A stretch of DNA of 64,000 bases from Pleurocapsales cyanobacterium LEGE 06147. GTDB taxonomy: Bacteria; Cyanobacteriota; Cyanobacteriia; Cyanobacteriales; Xenococcaceae. The stretch lies in contig JADEWQ010000012.1 of assembly GCA_015207585.1 (NCBI GenBank), positions 1 to 64,000 on the forward strand. Reading direction: 5' to 3'. Below are positions 621 through 9,647 of the stretch, piece by piece (the first letter of the stretch is position 1; each line of letters opens with the position of its first letter). The notes under the pieces are model-generated. The model did not search any database. It was not told where the DNA came from and saw only the letters and a program-made list of their open reading frames with translations. The translations under genes were made by a program, and so were the position numbers.

Positions 621-1874
621 TTATTCTTCACTATCTAATGGGGAAGGATATTCTAAAGCATGTTCGACAAGCTCGACAATTGAATTTTTGTTTTCATAAA
701 GCATGACTAAATGATCCCTTGCTCTTGTCATTGCTGTATACAAGCCAGCCTTTTCTGGAAAATCTTTATCTCGATCTTCAGTATTTTCTGTAAGGCGATC
801 GATTCCTGCTATGATAACAGCATCAAATTCTACTCCTTTTAAGGCATTCCAAGAATCAACTACTACATAGGGTCTGGTTACAATATTTAAATCTCTTTCC
901 TGAGAAGAATTTGGCGCATGATGGTTAATTTGTAATTCGTTTAGTTCTCTACTAATTTCTATTTTTAAATCTTTTGCTTGGGGATGAATTAATATACCAA
1001 TTGAAGATTCTGGATGAGTGTTTAAAGCATCTTTAACTTGCCTAGCAATTTGACTTGCCATGTCTTCATAATAAACTTCTAGAATAAGTGGTTGAATATT
1101 AGAACTTCTAGATAGCTTTTTTCTTGGTTCGATAATACTGCCAAGATCTGGAGTATTTTTAATTCTTCCTTCTTCATCCCGTTCTCGCTTTTCCACTCTC
1201 ATATTTGCACCAGCTAAAGCTGGCTTAATAAAACTCCAAGCTAGCTCTAAAATTTCTGGCGAATTGCGATAATTTAGATCGAATATTTGAGAACGACCTC
1301 CTGGAATATTAATTCCTAAATCTTTCCAACTCCAAGTTGATTTTCTTCTATGAGGCTGTCCATAAATCGATTGAGTATTATCGTAAACAATAAAAAAAGA
1401 ATCAGTCTCTGGATTTAATACTTCTAAAAGTCCTTGAAACCATTCATCATAAAAATCTTGAGCTTCATCTACTAAGATTGCTTGATATTTTAAATTAAAA
1501 TTTTTAGTTAATTTAATAATATTTTTTCTGGTATTGTCTTTTCTATCCCAATTATAGTCGTATTTAAATGTATCCCATGCCCATTTATGAAAAGTAGTAC
1601 AATCTACATTTTTACTTATTCCTTTTTCTTGCAGTTTAGATTTAAGCCAACCATTCATATAACGGTTATAAGTCAAAATTAAAATATCATCAAAATCTTC
1701 TAATAGTTTTTCAGCTCTATTACGCAGAACCAAAGATTTACCAGATCCAGCTACGCCACGAATAATTGCTGCACCTTCTGGTCTAAAATTTTTGGCTCTA
1801 GTTTGTTCTCGATCTAATTCTTCACGAGTTAGTCTTTGTGCAATGCTTTGCTCAAAATTAATCCATTGATTCAT
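621..1874 (-). CDS. Compact UvrD-like superfamily 1 helicase/ATPase
   Basis: 417-residue SF1 ATPase, likely acting on DNA. Motif I (Walker A, GVAGSGKS) is at residues 40-47, motif II DEAQDF at 136-141, a motif III-like segment YDNTQSIY at 164-171, LNYRNSPEI at 200-208, and a motif VI TAMTRARDHL near 385. It is much shorter than UvrD or PcrA (about 720 residues), so it lacks the large 1B/2B insertions. It resembles the helicase part of NERD-type nuclease-helicases without the nuclease domain. It is the last of a minus-strand run (pAgo, Uma2, helicase), 122 bases beyond the Uma2 gene. A defence role is inferred from the neighbours only. Confidence 0.85.
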   Translation of the reverse strand: MNQWINFEQSIAQRLTREELDREQTRAKNFRPEGAAIIRGVAGSGKSLVLRNRAEKLLEDFDDILILTYNRYMNGWLKSKLQEKGISKNVDCTTFHKWAWDTFKYDYNWDRKDNTRKNIIKLTKNFNLKYQAILVDEAQDFYDEWFQGLLEVLNPETDSFFIVYDNTQSIYGQPHRRKSTWSWKDLGINIPGGRSQIFDLNYRNSPEILELAWSFIKPALAGANMRVEKRERDEEGRIKNTPDLGSIIEPRKKLSRSSNIQPLILEVYYEDMASQIARQVKDALNTHPESSIGILIHPQAKDLKIEISRELNELQINHHAPNSSQERDLNIVTRPYVVVDSWNALKGVEFDAVIIAGIDRLTENTEDRDKDFPEKAGLYTAMTRARDHLVMLYENKNSIVELVEHALEYPSPLDSEE

Positions 1875-2616: not shown

Positions 2617-2665
2617 GTAGGGACGCTCGCTGCGCTGCTCCTACGGCGACAGGTCACGTCCCTAC
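2617..2665. repeat. GTAGGGACG palindromic repeat, copy A1
   Basis: A 49-bp element bounded by inverted ends GTAGGGACG and CGTCCCTAC, with a GC-rich centre. It is nearly identical to copy A2 inside the HUH transposase gene at 5237-5285. The 28-bp copies at 5589-5616 and 11932-11959 share the same ends. It resembles the REP or MITE-like hairpins that HUH transposases mobilise. Confidence 0.8.
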
Positions 2666-2729: not shown

Positions 2730-4878
2730 TTATGCAAAAAAAATCTTTTGGCGATCGACTCCTTGCAGAATTCCTACTTCCCCTATCCGTTGAACTGTTT
2801 TTGCCATTTTGTCAGCAAAATGAATGACATATGGTAAACGGCTAAAGGAATAACCGCTAGCTGGATTTAACAGACAAAGAAGATCTACTTGCTTGGCTAA
2901 AGTTTCTAAGGGATAGAAACAGTGCATTGCCAAAGTCTCTGATTACTTGTAAAGGACGCGCGCTTCCTCCTGCTATAGCTTGAGAAGTAACGATTCGGAA
3001 AGTATTACCATTTTTAGAAAGTATTGCTGTTCCTGGTTTTGCATCGTTTAAATGTTCTGATTGGTAGGGTAGAATTGCCATTCTTCCCGCACCACTTTTT
3101 CTTATTCCTAAAAGATCCGCGGCAATATTCTCTTTTAATAAAGCTGCGACAGTCTCTTCAAATTCATCACATTGTATAAAGCCGTCTCGAAGCAGCAATA
3201 CACGCTTAGGAAGTCTATTTTCTATTCGTCGAAATCTATTGATAATATTGGCAACAGTCCGTAATACCGCTTGTCCGTTTAGTTTTTCTCCTGGTTGTGC
3301 TTCGGGAAGTTCCCAGCCTAAACTTTGTCCGTTGGCTAAAATCGCAAAAGCACTAGTTCCGTAATATAAATTTCTATTAGTTCCTGCATCAAAACCAATT
3401 ACTACTTCGGCTGCGTATTCATCTTGTAAAGGTTCTAATCCAACTGGTTGCCACTTTGCCTTAAGTAGCAAACCTAAAATGATGTTAACAGCTCGATAGT
3501 CATCTCTTTTAGGCATCGGTTGCATAAATTGAAGAGCAATATTAGCTTCTAAAGCTTCTCTCTGAAGTTGAGCCTTTTCGGTATTTTGTAGCCAGGGACT
3601 AACTACTAAAACTGTATGGGTACCTCGATCTGACCAAGCTTGCCAGAATTGCTTGCGAGTCAATAAACTATCAGGTAAATCGTTGGTTTTCTTGGCTGGT
3701 TCTAAGAAAATATCTATGCCACTTCTTTTAGCTACATCTTCTAGCTTATTGCTAATAAATTCTGACCAATTACCATTTCCAGTTAAATCCAAACAACCGA
3801 ATTGTTTTTCTCCTGTACGAAAACAACCTTGTTTTAGACTTGCTTCTGGTTTAGAAACTTTTTTTGATTTAGTTAAAAGTAAAGGAGATCCCTTTCTCAG
3901 AATAGTTCCTTGAGTTTTTTGGGGTTTCGTTTCCCTTTCAACGTTATAGATTTTATTAGCAAGCCATTTAGCAACATTTTCTGCTTTCTCAAAACGCTGT
4001 TGAGGAAGTTGACGAATTTGTGTAAACACTTTAGCTGCTTCTTTTGAACCGCGATCTTTTAAACAGCTAAGAATTTCCATGGTTATGCTTGGTCTAAGTC
4101 GAGTAGAAAGATGAGGTAATTCCTTACCTTTGCTACTAATATAAACAACACGAGCATTGCGAATTTCTGCTTCTGTTGCTTTGTTTTTAGCCATGTTGCG
4201 ATGATAATTAGCTAAACTTCCCGAAGGAATCATAGTAGTTTCTGGATTTTCATCGCTAATTCTCACCAATTTCCAAGAGCGATCGTCATAAGTATTACGA
4301 ACCCAGTCAATAGGTATGTCGGGATAAGTTTGCAACCATTGTTCGAGTGTCCGAGAAGTATAAAAACGATGATGAGTATCAATTTCGGCAAAAACTACTC
4401 CTGAACGAGCGAGAATGATATCTAAATTAACTCCTGTATGAACTTCCCAACCCGAGTCTTGTAAAATAACCTTGTCTGCATTCCACCAAATAAACCCTCC
4501 TTCTGGCGATCGCTCGACCCGATTTTTGGCAGATTTATCTCTGAGTTTCCAACCCAACCAACGTCTTTCTAATCTTTCTAAAGCTTCTCGTTCATTTTCT
4601 TTGGCTGGATTGAGCAGTTGTGTACCTTGCGCTCGCAATAGCCAATTTTCACCCTGTAGGTATTTATCTGCTATTACTTCTTTGGTAATTATGGTCGAAC
4701 CAAATCTTACTCCTGACGTGCCAATGTTCCAGGTAATTCGATTAATTGCTGAATATTCTTTTCCTAGTTCTGGAGATGAATTAAATGTGTAAGTATAAAT
4801 TTGTACAGTTCTTTCAGCTTCGGTGAGATGTTTAACAGAAAACCGATTGAGAAAAACTTCAATAGCAAAATTATTCAT
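2730..4878 (-). pseudogene. Long prokaryotic Argonaute (pAgo), frameshifted near the 3' end
   Basis: Nucleic-acid-guided nuclease of the Argonaute family. The main frame (4878 to 2857) gives 673 residues. It has N/L1 and PAZ-like regions to about 270, MID about 380-485 and PIWI from about 490. Catalytic residues are D497 (FDAG), E531 (QPGEKL) and D565 (LLRDG), spaced 34 and 68 residues as in Thermus thermophilus Ago (D478, E512, D546). After VIRDFG the frame runs into unrelated residues and stops. The true PIWI end, with the fourth Asp in RLPYVIHFADK 27 residues from the terminus, is in the +1 frame at 2730-2933. Dropping one T from the TTT at 2932-2934 restores a 715-residue protein. It may be a recent pseudogene, a variant or a sequencing error. 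Confidence 0.88.
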
Positions 4879-4929: not shown

Positions 4930-5577
4930 CTATTGGTAATTAGAATTATTAAAAAACTTCTTTTCTTTAGATTTAAGCGATAAAATATTTGGATTATTTT
5001 CGTCTTCTGACCATTTAATAGGATTATTAACAATGTATTCGCGAATTTTATCTAAAGAACCATCATTACGGATAATATGTTCATAAAATCTAGGTTGCCA
5101 AGCAAAATTATTAAAACCATTTTGTTTACACCATCTGGTTACAGAAGATTTATAAGAACGAACAATCGTACTAAGCGACCCCGATTGAGGTGACAATTCT
5201 GACATTATTTGGGATAAATCATAATCATGATTTGGTGTAGGTACGTTCGCTGCGCTGCGCCTACGGCGACAGGTCACGTCCCTACAGGGGTTATCGGGAT
5301 TGTCGAGCGCTATAATTCCATGTAAATGATTGGGCATAATGATATATTCATCTAAATAGGTAGATTTTGAATGCTGAGATATTTCTAACCAAAATCTTTG
5401 GGCAATTTTACCAATAGAAGACAATTGCATTTGATGATTAATAATATTTCCGAAATAACAAATTTTTTGATGGGTACAAATTGTTACAAAATAATATCCA
5501 TTCCCTGCATAATTTCTATTGGGTAATCGAATCGATTTACGACGACAATTGATATTATTTAATGTCATGGTTGTCAC
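4930..5577 (-). CDS. REP-associated tyrosine transposase (RAYT-like, Y1 HUH family)
   Basis: Single-strand DNA transposase of the IS200/REP-associated HUH group, which recognises and nicks hairpin repeats. Visible motifs are YYFVTICTHQK at 29-38, the HUH pair HLH at 84-86 (IIMPNHLHGII) and a C-terminal block REYIVNNPIKW carrying the candidate catalytic Tyr. The longest frame starts with GTG at 5577; the ATG at 5568 is equally good. Residues 98-114 are encoded by a 49-bp GTAGGGACG repeat lying in the linker after the HUH block, and the frame stays open through it. Another copy lies 11 bases upstream of the start. pAgo begins about 50 bases downstream on the same strand. Confidence 0.85.
   Translation of the reverse strand: MTTMTLNNINCRRKSIRLPNRNYAGNGYYFVTICTHQKICYFGNIINHQMQLSSIGKIAQRFWLEISQHSKSTYLDEYIIMPNHLHGIIALDNPDNPCRDVTCRRRRSAANVPTPNHDYDLSQIMSELSPQSGSLSTIVRSYKSSVTRWCKQNGFNNFAWQPRFYEHIIRNDGSLDKIREYIVNNPIKWSEDENNPNILSLKSKEKKFFNNSNYQ
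5237..5285. repeat. GTAGGGACG palindromic repeat, copy A2, inside the RAYT gene
   Basis: Same 49-bp structure as the copy at 2617-2665 (first end GTAGGTACG, last end CGTCCCTAC). It lies wholly within the transposase reading frame and encodes an Arg-rich linker without breaking it. Confidence 0.8.
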
Positions 5578-5654: not shown

Positions 5655-8600
5655 TTATTCAATCCCTTCAATCCGATCTTCGACTTCTTGATACAATTCC
5701 CGCAGACGGTCTAAATTCTCCTCACTAGTTTCCCAGTAACCGCGACCGTTAACTTCTAACAACGTACCAACAATCTTGCGGAAAGAATTGGGGTTGAGGT
5801 TCATCAGTCGCTGACACATTTCGGGGTCATTAATAAAGGTAGTATTGACATCTTCGTAGACCCAATTATCAACTGCATCGGCGGTAGCACTCCAACCCAT
5901 GGTATTAACCAATCGCTTGGAGAGTTCTCGAACACCTTCGTAACCGTGATTGAGCATACCTTCGTACCATTTGGGATTTAGTAGTTTGGTACGGGCATCT
6001 AAACGGACGGTTTCGGAGAGAGTACGAACTTGGGCGTTAGCGGTTGTAGTATCGGCGATGTATGCTGCTGGTTTCTTAGCATCATCCCGTAAGCCAGAAA
6101 CTACTTTAGTTGGGTCGGAATCAAAGTAGTGAGATACGTCTGTGAGGCTTATCTCAGAAGAATCGAGGTTTTGAAAAGTTACTTCTGCTGTTTTTAAAGT
6201 CTTTTCCAATATTTTCCGGTTTTCCGCCATTATTCCTGGATTATCGGAGTCAAAAGAGAAAGACTTGCGTTTTAAATACATCTCTTGCAATTCTTTTTCT
6301 TCTTCCCAACTGCTATTTTCGACAGCTAGATTGATGTTAGAAGAGTAAGAACCAGAAGCATTGGAGAAAACGCGGGTAGCTGCCTGACGCAGGTTAATCC
6401 CCATTTCTTCTGCTTGGGCTAAAGCGTGTTTGCGAACGTAGTTCATCTCTACTGGTTCATTCGCTTCTGCTGCCATTTTGATTCCTCGATCGAGAAGATT
6501 CATCTGGTTGATAAAGAGGTCGCGGAAAACACCAGAACAATTAACTACTACATCGATACGGGGACGACCTAATTCTTCTAAGGGGATAAGTTCTAGTTTG
6601 TTAACTCTTCCCAAAGCATCGGGGACGGGACGAACGCCCACCATCCACATGATTTGGGCTAAGGATTCGCCGTAGGTTTTGATGTTATCGGTTCCCCAGA
6701 GAACGCAGGCGATGGTTTCGGGGTATTGACCGCCATTATCTATTTTTTGTCGTTCTAAAAGGCGATCGACAACAATTTTGGCAGATTTAACCGCAGCCAG
6801 AGTAGGAATAGCTTGGGGATCGAGGGCATGAATATTTTTACCTGTAGGTAATACATTGGGATTGCGGATGGGATCGCCTCCTGGTCCAGGAATAATGTAT
6901 TCTCCTTCTAAAGCCTTGATTAATGCCCCAAGTTCATTATCGGCACAAATTTGTTCGAGACAGAATTCTAGATATTCAAACAGTGGTTTGAGGACCTCGG
7001 TATCGACGTTTTTGTAACCAAGCTGATGTAAGGCTTCTACCCAGGGTGCTTTTTTGCCGAGATTAAAGAAGTTCAGTTTAGAGATAGCCGATACTCGTCC
7101 CTCAGTGTCTACTTGAGCTTTGACTAAGGCACTTACAGCAGCGCGGGTGGCTTGAGTAATTTCTTGCAATAATTGGACATCACTCAGAACGCCACGGTCG
7201 TTGTTAGCATAGATCTCATCAATATTGCGTCTGATGCTATTGGCAATAATGCGGGGTAGAGAGAGAATTCCTTCTTCTTCACGGTCTAAGCTGGCTATAT
7301 TAACCAGAGTTGCGATCGCTTCTTCTGCTGTTGGTGGTTTACCAATGACGTGCAAGCCACAGGGTAGCAGACGGGATTCGATTTCCATCAATTTTTTGTA
7401 GACCAAACCGACGATAGTATCTCTTTCTTCGGTATTCATGTCTTTGGCATCTTTATCTGGCAATGCGATATCTTTGTCTAGATTGACCAGCCGTGCCTTA
7501 TCTACTATGGTATTGACGATCTGAATACCTCGACTGCCATCTTTTAGGGTTTGGTAAGAACCAATTAGTTCCCCCAGTTCTTTTAACCCTTTGTATAAGC
7601 CAGCATTTTCTGCCGGCGGAGTTAGGTAAGAAATAGTTTCGGCGTAACTGCGACGTTTGGCAATAGTTGCTTCGGAAGGGTTATTAGCCGCGTAATAGTA
7701 CATATTAGGAATGGTACCGATCAGACTATCGGGATAACAGTCTCCAGACATTCCCATCTGCTTGCCTGGCATAAATTCCAAAGAACCGTGCGTACCGAAG
7801 TGCAATACGGTATCGGCATGCCAGACATGGTTTAAGTATGTATAATAAGCGGCAAAACCGTGGTGAGGACTGGCAGAACGCGAAAATAACAGGCGCATGG
7901 GATCGCCTTCATAACCAAAGGTAGGTTGTACGCCAATGAAGACGTTACCAAAATGCTTACCGTAAATAAGTAGATTTTGTCCATCACTGTTAAGATGTCC
8001 TGGTGGCGGTCCCCAATTTTCTTCTAAGCGAACGGAATAGGGAGTCAGCCTTTCATACTGTTGTACTGACATCTTATAGGCAATATTTAATTCTGGGGAA
8101 GCATATTGTGCTTGGGCATTGTGAATGACTGCTTCCATTAACTCTTGGGGTGAATTAGGTAAGTCTTGGACATCATAACCATTTCCTTGGAGGGCTTTCA
8201 TTACCTCGTAGATCGAACCAAAAACATCTAGATAAGCGGCAGTACCGACATTACCCTTATCCGGTGGAAAACTGAATACAGTAATGGCAATTTTCTTATC
8301 TAACTTGGGTTTTTTGCGCAGATTTGCCCATTTCATTGCCCGTTGAGCGATCGCTTCGATTCTATCTTGCAAGGCGATCGCCCTTCCCGTCATGCCATCT
8401 CTTCCAGAGAGAATAATTGGTTCGATTGCGCCATCTAGTTCGGGAATGGCAATTTGTAAGGCTACTTGAATCGGGTGTAGACCCAGATCGCTTGCTTCCC
8501 ATTCTTCCGTAGTTTGAAATACCAGGGGTAAAGCCACCATATAGGGACGATTGAGACTTTTTAAAGATTCTATTGCCTTGGGATGATCTTGACGGGCAGG

Positions 8601-9647
8601 ACCTCCTACCAGGGCAAATCCGGTTAAAGAAACAACTACATCTACTATAGGCTGGGGTTGCTTACCTTTTATACCTACTTCCCAAAAATAGGTATCTACT
8701 GGTTTAGAGAAATCCAAACCTCCGGCAAAGATAGCAATTACCCTCGCACCCATTGCCTCTAATTCCTGTACCATAGCAACGTAGTGGGCATCGTCTCCTG
8801 TAACCAGGTGAGTACGCTGAAGTACCAAACCAACACATGGTGCTAAAGGGTCTTTAATATCTTCAGAAATATCTTCGCGACTGTTAAACCAATTCAAATA
8901 TTCTTTGACATCCTCAAACATTTTGGGGGCAAGAGGATGCCAGATACCCATATCCGGGTAGACTATTGGTTCGGAGTATTCGACAGAAGTTTGTTGGCGT
9001 TTATCTTTATATACATATCTATCTGCCAGCATCAAGAGGAAGTTTTCTAAGTTCTCTGCATTACCCCCCAGCCAATACTGGAAACTAAGCATGAAATTTC
9101 TTGCATCCTGCGCCTTTTCAACGGGTAAATATTTTAAAACTTTAGGCAAGGTTCGCAATAGCTTCAGCATGGCATCCTGAAAAGAACTGCCAGAATTTTC
9201 TTTGCGTTTTTTCATAAACTGGGCGATCGCACTTTTGGACTGTCCCAGTTGCGCCATCGAAAAACTGCCCAACTTGTTCAGGCGCATTACTTCTGGCATC
9301 GAAGGAAAAACAATCGCAGCATCTAAGCGATCGCGATGGGGTTGGACTGCAGCTACTACCTTTTGGGCTAAATCTTCGATAAATACTAGAGACGCAATAA
9401 AAATATTAGCTTCTGAGATGTCTTTCTGGAAGTTTGCATAATTTTCCTCATCTCGCAATTCTTCAATTAAGTAGCCACTCAATTGAACGGCAAAATAGCG
9501 ATTATTGCAGTTAATGGATTTAGCTGCTTCTGTAAGAGTACTCTGATACTGAGGCTCTAGCACGACATAGACCACCTTGAGTAGATCGCGTCCATTTAGT
9601 TCTTCTGGTTTGACCCTGCGTATGGTGGACTTGACGTGAGTAAACAT
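5655..9647 (-). CDS. chlH: Magnesium chelatase subunit H
   Basis: Large porphyrin-binding subunit of magnesium chelatase. With ChlI and ChlD it inserts Mg2+ into protoporphyrin IX, the first committed step of chlorophyll synthesis. At 1330 residues it is the usual cyanobacterial length and is collinear from [17 protein letters not shown] to [15 protein letters not shown]. The CobN/BchH family core with [15 protein letters not shown] and [16 protein letters not shown] is intact. The start at 9647 is supported by a strong ribosome-binding site, AAGGAG, 10 bases upstream. It stands alone, with a 426-base AT-rich region upstream that probably holds its promoter. ChlH is often duplicated in cyanobacteria; this looks like the standard chlorophyll copy, not CobN. 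Confidence 0.97.

What the first reader, a model, noticed from the sequence alone, without database searches (positions are those of the whole stretch)
2857..2940. pAgo gene carries a one-base frameshift that removes its last catalytic aspartate
The main frame encodes D497, E531 and D565 of the DEDX tetrad with spacings (34, 68) equal to those of Thermus thermophilus Ago. It then leaves the PIWI pattern at VIRDFG and stops at 2857. The genuine end, RLPYVIHFADK with the fourth Asp, continues in the +1 frame (2933 to 2730). Deleting one T at 2932-2934 yields a regular 715-residue protein. All else in the gene is intact, so this is either recent inactivation, phase-type variation, an unusual recoding event or an assembly error.
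Basis: partly seen in the sequence, partly recalled or inferred. Interest (0 to 1): 0.72.

Follow-up and report, generated by a model that had tools for sequence, protein, structure and literature searches.

The report
Argonaute gene broken by 10-base insertion
A cyanobacterium's DNA-guided defence nuclease (Argonaute) gene, intact in its closest relatives, has been knocked out recently by a small insertion of ten bases, and several relatives have lost the same gene independently, which suggests that this defence is easily discarded.

Summary
Against 12 intact homologues and Thermus Ago, the gene carries a 10-bp insertion (CTGTTTCTAT, minus strand, window 2922-2913) between codons that are adjacent in all of them. 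It is not one extra T at 2932-2934. The insertion makes a 7-bp hairpin with the DNA just downstream (chance about 2%), which fits a template-switch (quasipalindrome) mutation. The 673-aa product keeps D497, E531 and D565. It loses 60 residues holding the fourth Asp (codon 2813-2811, = TtAgo D660) and the native C-terminus that binds the guide 5' phosphate, so it is very probably inactive. The locus (bchH-RAYT-pAgo) is orthologous to intact genes in two relatives. The lost tail still shows strong purifying selection (dN/dS about 0.04), so the lesion is recent. Four other TtAgo-type copies in the order are broken by different lesions (5 of 17 in all; 4 of 10 in the family). Best explanation: a recent pseudogene, one of several independent losses. 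The selective reason is inferred from Synechococcus elongatus, where plasmid maintenance selects ago frameshifts. Phase variation and programmed recoding are unlikely; an artefact cannot be excluded without reads.

The parts
2857..4878 (-). pAgo main frame, 673 aa: N, PAZ, MID and most of PIWI, including D497, E531 and D565
   Evidence: (PAZ_3 E=2e-26; Ago_Mid sub-threshold)
2913..2922 (-). 10-bp insertion CTGTTTCTAT (+1 frameshift)
   Evidence: absent from 9 homologous copies aligned as DNA and 12 intact proteins
2902..2920 (-). perfect 7-bp inverted repeat GTTTCTA-TCCCT-TAGAAAC, one arm inside the insertion and the other in ancestral sequence just downstream
   Evidence: P about 0.02 for random 10-mers from the gene
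2857..2922 (-). out-of-family C-terminus of the truncated product (LFLSLRNFSQASRSSLSVKSS*)
2730..2912 (-). displaced native PIWI C-terminus, 60 residues plus stop, in the +1 frame; dN/dS 0.04-0.08 against the two closest homologues
2811..2813 (-). codon of the fourth catalytic Asp (HFAD; = TtAgo D660), outside the open frame
4930..5577 (-). RAYT-like Y1 transposase gene upstream; same neighbour in both closest relatives
5655..9647 (-). bchH/chlH (named from sequence inspection), about 90% identical to the two closest relatives; fixes orthology of the locus

Best explanation
The gene is a recent pseudogene of a catalytic, TtAgo-type long-A prokaryotic Argonaute. A 10-bp insertion near codon 652 shifts the frame. 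It probably arose by a short template switch during replication, in which polymerase copied part of a nearby inverted arm (TAGAAAC) and so improved a pre-existing weak inverted repeat. The 673-aa product lacks the last 60 residues of PIWI, including the fourth catalytic Asp and the C-terminal carboxylate that helps hold the guide 5' phosphate, so it should neither cut nor bind guides normally. Shown here: the lesion, the orthology, intact relatives, conservation of the displaced tail, and independent lesions in relatives. Inferred: loss of activity, the template-switch origin, and the reason for loss. The likely reason is that losing Ago removes a barrier to natural transformation and plasmid maintenance, as shown in Synechococcus elongatus.
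For: Nine homologous copies run gap-free across the site and only the window has the 10 bp; twelve intact proteins show no length change there. TtAgo aligns over the full length, and its D660 and C-terminus fall in the displaced part. Locus order bchH-RAYT-pAgo is shared with two close relatives that have intact pAgo, with bchH about 90% identical. The tail in the lost frame has dN/dS 0.040 (vs L011) and 0.077 (vs L010); on the window branch it has 2 nonsynonymous and 8 synonymous changes, so at most about 25-37% of that branch passed without constraint. The insertion forms a 7-bp perfect stem (P about 0.02) nested in a pre-existing imperfect inverted repeat; E. coli template-switch mutations make quasipalindromes more perfect (PMC7202029). 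Other copies are broken differently: +1 A in an A-run (G006), two single-base deletions (G019), loss of the first ~600 codons (G022), internal deletion plus frameshift and stops (G071). The family's broken copies fall on separate branches of the tree (G071 was left out of it). S. elongatus ago frameshifts (1-, 4-, 10-nt deletions) arise under selection for RSF1010 plasmid maintenance, and ago loss raises transformation (PMC10653904).
Against: No reads or second isolate were available, so an assembly or culture artefact is possible. The strong conservation of the tail would also be seen if the tail were still translated. The body of the gene shows no relaxation of selection. The template-switch origin rests on a 2% coincidence. 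No plasmid-related selection was shown in this organism; an RSF1010 RepC search found nothing in the family, but no control genome rang either.
Confidence: 0.8

Rival explanations
1. Sequencing or assembly artefact, or a mutation acquired in culture; the natural population has an intact gene.
For: The tail is almost perfectly conserved, as expected if the gene is intact in nature. The genome is a 244-contig draft.
Against: A 10-bp non-repeat insertion with a hairpin relationship to its flank is not a typical base-calling or homopolymer error. The neighbouring bchH and RAYT genes are intact in the window. The exact sequence ATGCACTGTTTCTATCCC occurs once in the genome, and weaker matches are at the chance level of the reversed control, so a misjoin copying another locus is unlikely.
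Confidence: 0.12
2. The full protein is still made by ribosomal +1 frameshifting (a slip at TCC CTT AGA would restore ETLAK), or the C-terminus is made separately from the ATG at 2928 in the tail's frame and joins the main protein.
For: The tail keeps very low dN/dS. CTT-AGA resembles the known CTT-AGG +1 slip site of yeast Ty1 (my own knowledge). An ATG opens the tail frame (sequence).
Against: CTT-AGA here is the out-of-frame reading of the ancestral CCC TTA GAA codons, not a newly acquired signal. Intact relatives need no recoding. No strong ribosome-binding site is evident before 2928 by inspection, and the frames overlap by about 70 nt without stop-start coupling.
Confidence: 0.05
3. The truncated protein has been kept as a catalytically dead guide-binding pAgo, working like long-B pAgos through another nuclease, for example the downstream Uma2-family protein.
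For: N, PAZ, MID and most of PIWI are intact and under constraint. A Uma2 gene lies downstream.
Against: It also loses the C-terminal carboxylate that with a metal holds the guide 5' phosphate in TtAgo (PMC2835997) and the end of the RNase H fold. The Uma2 and helicase genes are not neighbours of the intact orthologues in the two closest relatives. Inactive pAgos are described as having substituted catalytic residues (PMC6299218), not a lost C-terminus.
Confidence: 0.03

Closest known systems
Thermus thermophilus Argonaute (TtAgo; PDB 3DLB, 3DLH and others)
   Same: Best match among solved structures over the full length of the homologue profile (E about 1e-86); three catalytic residues with identical spacing; the fourth Asp and C-terminus align in the displaced frame.
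   Different: The window copy is truncated by a frameshift before the fourth Asp and the C-terminus.
Cyanobacterial active long-A pAgos, including SeAgo and the Stanieria and Pleurocapsa proteins (PMC10653904)
   Same: The paper places predicted active cyanobacterial pAgos (PAZ plus DEDX) in one cluster with TtAgo and lists Stanieria and Pleurocapsa among their hosts; the intact relatives found here are TtAgo-like and include Hyellaceae, Pleurocapsales and Myxosarcina records.
   Different: The paper describes natural copies as active or not, and laboratory-selected ago mutants; natural pseudogenes in this family were not reported in the passages read.
Laboratory-selected ago frameshift mutants of S. 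elongatus (PMC10653904)
   Same: Small frame-shifting indels, including a 10-nt one, disrupt the gene.
   Different: Those are deletions selected during plasmid maintenance; this is a natural 10-bp insertion of unknown selective cause.
Quasipalindrome-associated template-switch mutations (PMC7202029)
   Same: The mutation improves an imperfect inverted repeat and shifts the frame.
   Different: Only 7 of the 10 inserted bases are accounted for by the nearby arm; inferred from sequence alone.

Membership tests
TtAgo-type long-A pAgo (the gene's ancestry) | Sequence homology over N-PAZ-MID-PIWI to TtAgo | tested here: met
   PAZ_3 E=2e-26; homologue profile including the window protein against TtAgo E=9.8e-87
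TtAgo-type long-A pAgo (catalytic) | Complete DEDX catalytic tetrad in the translated frame | tested here: not met
   D497, E531, D565 present; the fourth Asp lies at 2813-2811 in the +1 frame
TtAgo-type long-A pAgo (catalytic) | Native C-terminus that coordinates the guide 5' phosphate metal | tested here: not met
   The ORF ends at 2857 with an unrelated 21-residue tail; role of the C-terminus from PMC2835997
Pseudogene | Disrupting lesion in a gene that is intact in orthologues at the same locus | tested here: met
Pseudogene | Loss of protein activity | not testable with these tools
   needs expression and a cleavage assay
Quasipalindrome template-switch mutation | Mutation makes an imperfect inverted repeat more perfect | tested here: met
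   7-bp stem made by the insertion inside a pre-existing 6-bp imperfect pair; P about 0.02
Phase-variable gene | Repeat tract or invertible element at the lesion | tested here: not met
   no tandem repeat or homopolymer longer than 3 at 2913-2922 (sequence)
Programmed +1 frameshift gene | Conserved frameshift arrangement across homologues | tested here: not met
   12 of 12 intact homologues read straight through
Long-B (catalytically inactive) pAgo | Membership of the long-B clade and association with an effector nuclease | tested here: not met
   closest relatives are full-length TtAgo-type proteins with the complete tetrad; Uma2 is not adjacent in the closest orthologues. No explicit long-A/long-B tree was built.

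The most novel reading that the evidence does not exclude
The gene is expressed across the frameshift at a low or regulated level (slip at TCC-CTT-AGA), or works as a split two-chain Argonaute with a separately started C-terminal chain. Either would explain the almost unchanged tail and would be a recoded or split catalytic Argonaute.
Probability: 0.04. Interest if true: 0.75.

Novelty: new member of a known kind. Interest (0 to 1): 0.35.

Why it matters
A single broken defence gene is ordinary. The pattern is more useful: in one cyanobacterial family 4 of 10 TtAgo-type copies are broken, each by a different lesion, and three of them have an intact orthologue at the same locus in a near relative. 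That gives natural intact/broken pairs for testing whether loss of Argonaute is favoured because it permits DNA uptake or plasmid carriage, as laboratory selection in Synechococcus elongatus suggests. It also warns that annotated truncated cyanobacterial pAgos may be pseudogenes rather than a functional inactive class.

Tried and rejected
One-base deletion at 2932-2934 as the lesion: rejected by alignment. Transposon excision footprint or target-site duplication: no flanking duplication (longest direct match 3 bp), and no other genomic copy of the junction above the level of the reversed control. Second pAgo in the genome: none found with the protein query; Pfam Piwi PF02171 is too insensitive here, as it misses this gene too. 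Plasmid cause: RSF1010 RepC family search negative but uncontrolled. Baseline for disruption: type I HsdR in the same genomes looked mostly intact (about 1 of 15 of the stronger matches clearly disrupted, my own reading of the table; Fisher P = 0.12 against 4 of 10), so an excess of pAgo breakage is suggestive only. AlphaFold of an intact homologue was queued but never returned. No second isolate of the species was available to the tools.

Full report
Observation. On the minus strand, 4878-2857 encodes a 673-aa Argonaute-like protein, and the sequence RLPYVIHFADK continues in the +1 frame to 2730. Pfam finds PAZ_3 (E=2e-26) and a sub-threshold Ago_Mid. A profile of homologues matches T. thermophilus Ago over its whole length (E about 1e-86); D497, E531 and D565 align with TtAgo D478, E512 and D546, and HFAD in the displaced frame aligns with D660. 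So the frameshift is there, and it does separate the last catalytic Asp from the rest.

What the lesion is. DNA alignment with nine homologous copies from the same family (six intact, three broken elsewhere) shows that all run from the (G/A)ATGC(A/G) codons straight into CC(C/T)(T/C)T(A/G)GA without a gap. The window has ten extra bases there, CTGTTTCTAT, at 2922-2913. Twelve intact homologues across the order, and TtAgo, have no length variation at this point. Elsewhere the gene differs from its closest relatives only by in-frame gaps.

How the insertion may have arisen. The inserted GTTTCTA is the exact reverse complement of TAGAAAC four bases downstream of the insertion, making a 7-bp stem with a 5-nt loop. 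About 2% of random 10-mers from the gene do as well. The sequence without the insertion already folds as a weaker imperfect inverted repeat (TTTGGC/GCCAAG), and the insertion strengthens it. That is the behaviour of quasipalindrome-associated template switching described in E. coli (PMC7202029). There is no flanking duplication, and the junction sequence is not repeated in the genome above chance. The template-switch origin is an inference.

Orthology and age. The order bchH - RAYT - pAgo is the same in G001 and G008, two relatives with intact pAgo; bchH is about 90% identical and pAgo about 76-77%. The displaced tail has dN/dS 0.040 and 0.077 against these two, lower than the body (about 0.27). 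On the window branch the tail has 2 nonsynonymous and 8 synonymous changes. A tail free of constraint for the whole branch should show 17-26 nonsynonymous changes, so at most about a quarter to a third of the branch passed since the lesion. The lesion is recent, or the tail is still translated, or the lesion is not real in nature; sequence alone cannot separate these.

Consequence. The product ends in 21 unrelated residues and lacks the last 60 native ones. In TtAgo a metal bound to the C-terminal carboxylate holds the first and third guide phosphates (PMC2835997). Both target cutting and guide anchoring should fail. This is inference from structure, not assay.

Relatives. In the family, 10 of 27 genomes have a TtAgo-type copy; six are intact and four broken. 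Lesions: G000 +10 bp; G006 (Hyella patelloides LEGE 07179, L026) +1 A in an A-run; G019 two separate single-base deletions; G022 only about the last 106 codons left, behind an unrelated gene that looks HicA-like (name from inspection). In the order a further copy, G071, has an internal deletion, a frameshift and stops, giving 5 broken of 17 (counting only strong matches to the TtAgo-type profile). The family's broken copies lie on separate branches, each next to intact ones (G071 was not placed in the tree). G019 and G007 share their neighbours (ilvC and others), and G022 and G023 share theirs. These are independent events, although the single-base ones in draft genomes could include errors. 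A rough control with HsdR suggests that pAgo is broken more often, but not significantly.

Why it may be lost. In S. elongatus, whose SeAgo is TtAgo-like, ago loss strongly raises natural transformation. All eight strains passaged with an RSF1010 plasmid carried ago mutations, among them 1-, 4- and 10-nt deletions (PMC10653904). The same selection is a reasonable guess here, untested. A search for the RSF1010 RepC family in this family found nothing, but the search had no positive control.

Comparison with the known. The gene is by descent a TtAgo-type long-A pAgo, but as it stands it fails two defining features (complete tetrad, native C-terminus). Long-A pAgos with substituted tetrads are described (PMC6299218). 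Natural recurrent pseudogenization in one cyanobacterial family was not found in the passages I read, but the literature search was limited.

Verdict.

Noticed in passing
window 2640-2664 and 5260-5284 (minus strand): A dispersed repeat (TAGGGACGTGACCTGTCGCCGTAGG...) lies on both sides of pAgo, one copy inside the RAYT reading frame without breaking it; seven copies with up to 3 mismatches in the genome, none for the reversed control. Possibly the RAYT's REP-like element.
   Followed up: partly
L053 6678-7255: The RAYT next to the intact pAgo in G008 is split into two frames, whereas it is whole in the window and in G001.
   Followed up: no
L026 5998-8146: Hyella patelloides LEGE 07179 pAgo: one extra A in a run of A splits an otherwise intact gene; this one could be a phase-variable tract or a sequencing error.
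   Followed up: partly
L057 2211-2898: In G022 the first ~600 codons of pAgo are gone and the remaining C-terminus follows a small HicA-like gene.
   Followed up: partly
L047 1275-2302: G071 carries a pAgo with the middle ~380 codons deleted plus a frameshift and stops.
   Followed up: partly
window 2857-4878: Pfam Piwi (PF02171) does not hit this pAgo, and of the 14 control genomes only M. jannaschii rang, so Pfam-based surveys may undercount TtAgo-type cyanobacterial pAgos.
   Followed up: no
window 621-1874 and 1997-2569: A UvrD-like helicase and a Uma2-family protein lie downstream of pAgo; they are not neighbours of pAgo in the two closest relatives.
   Followed up: no
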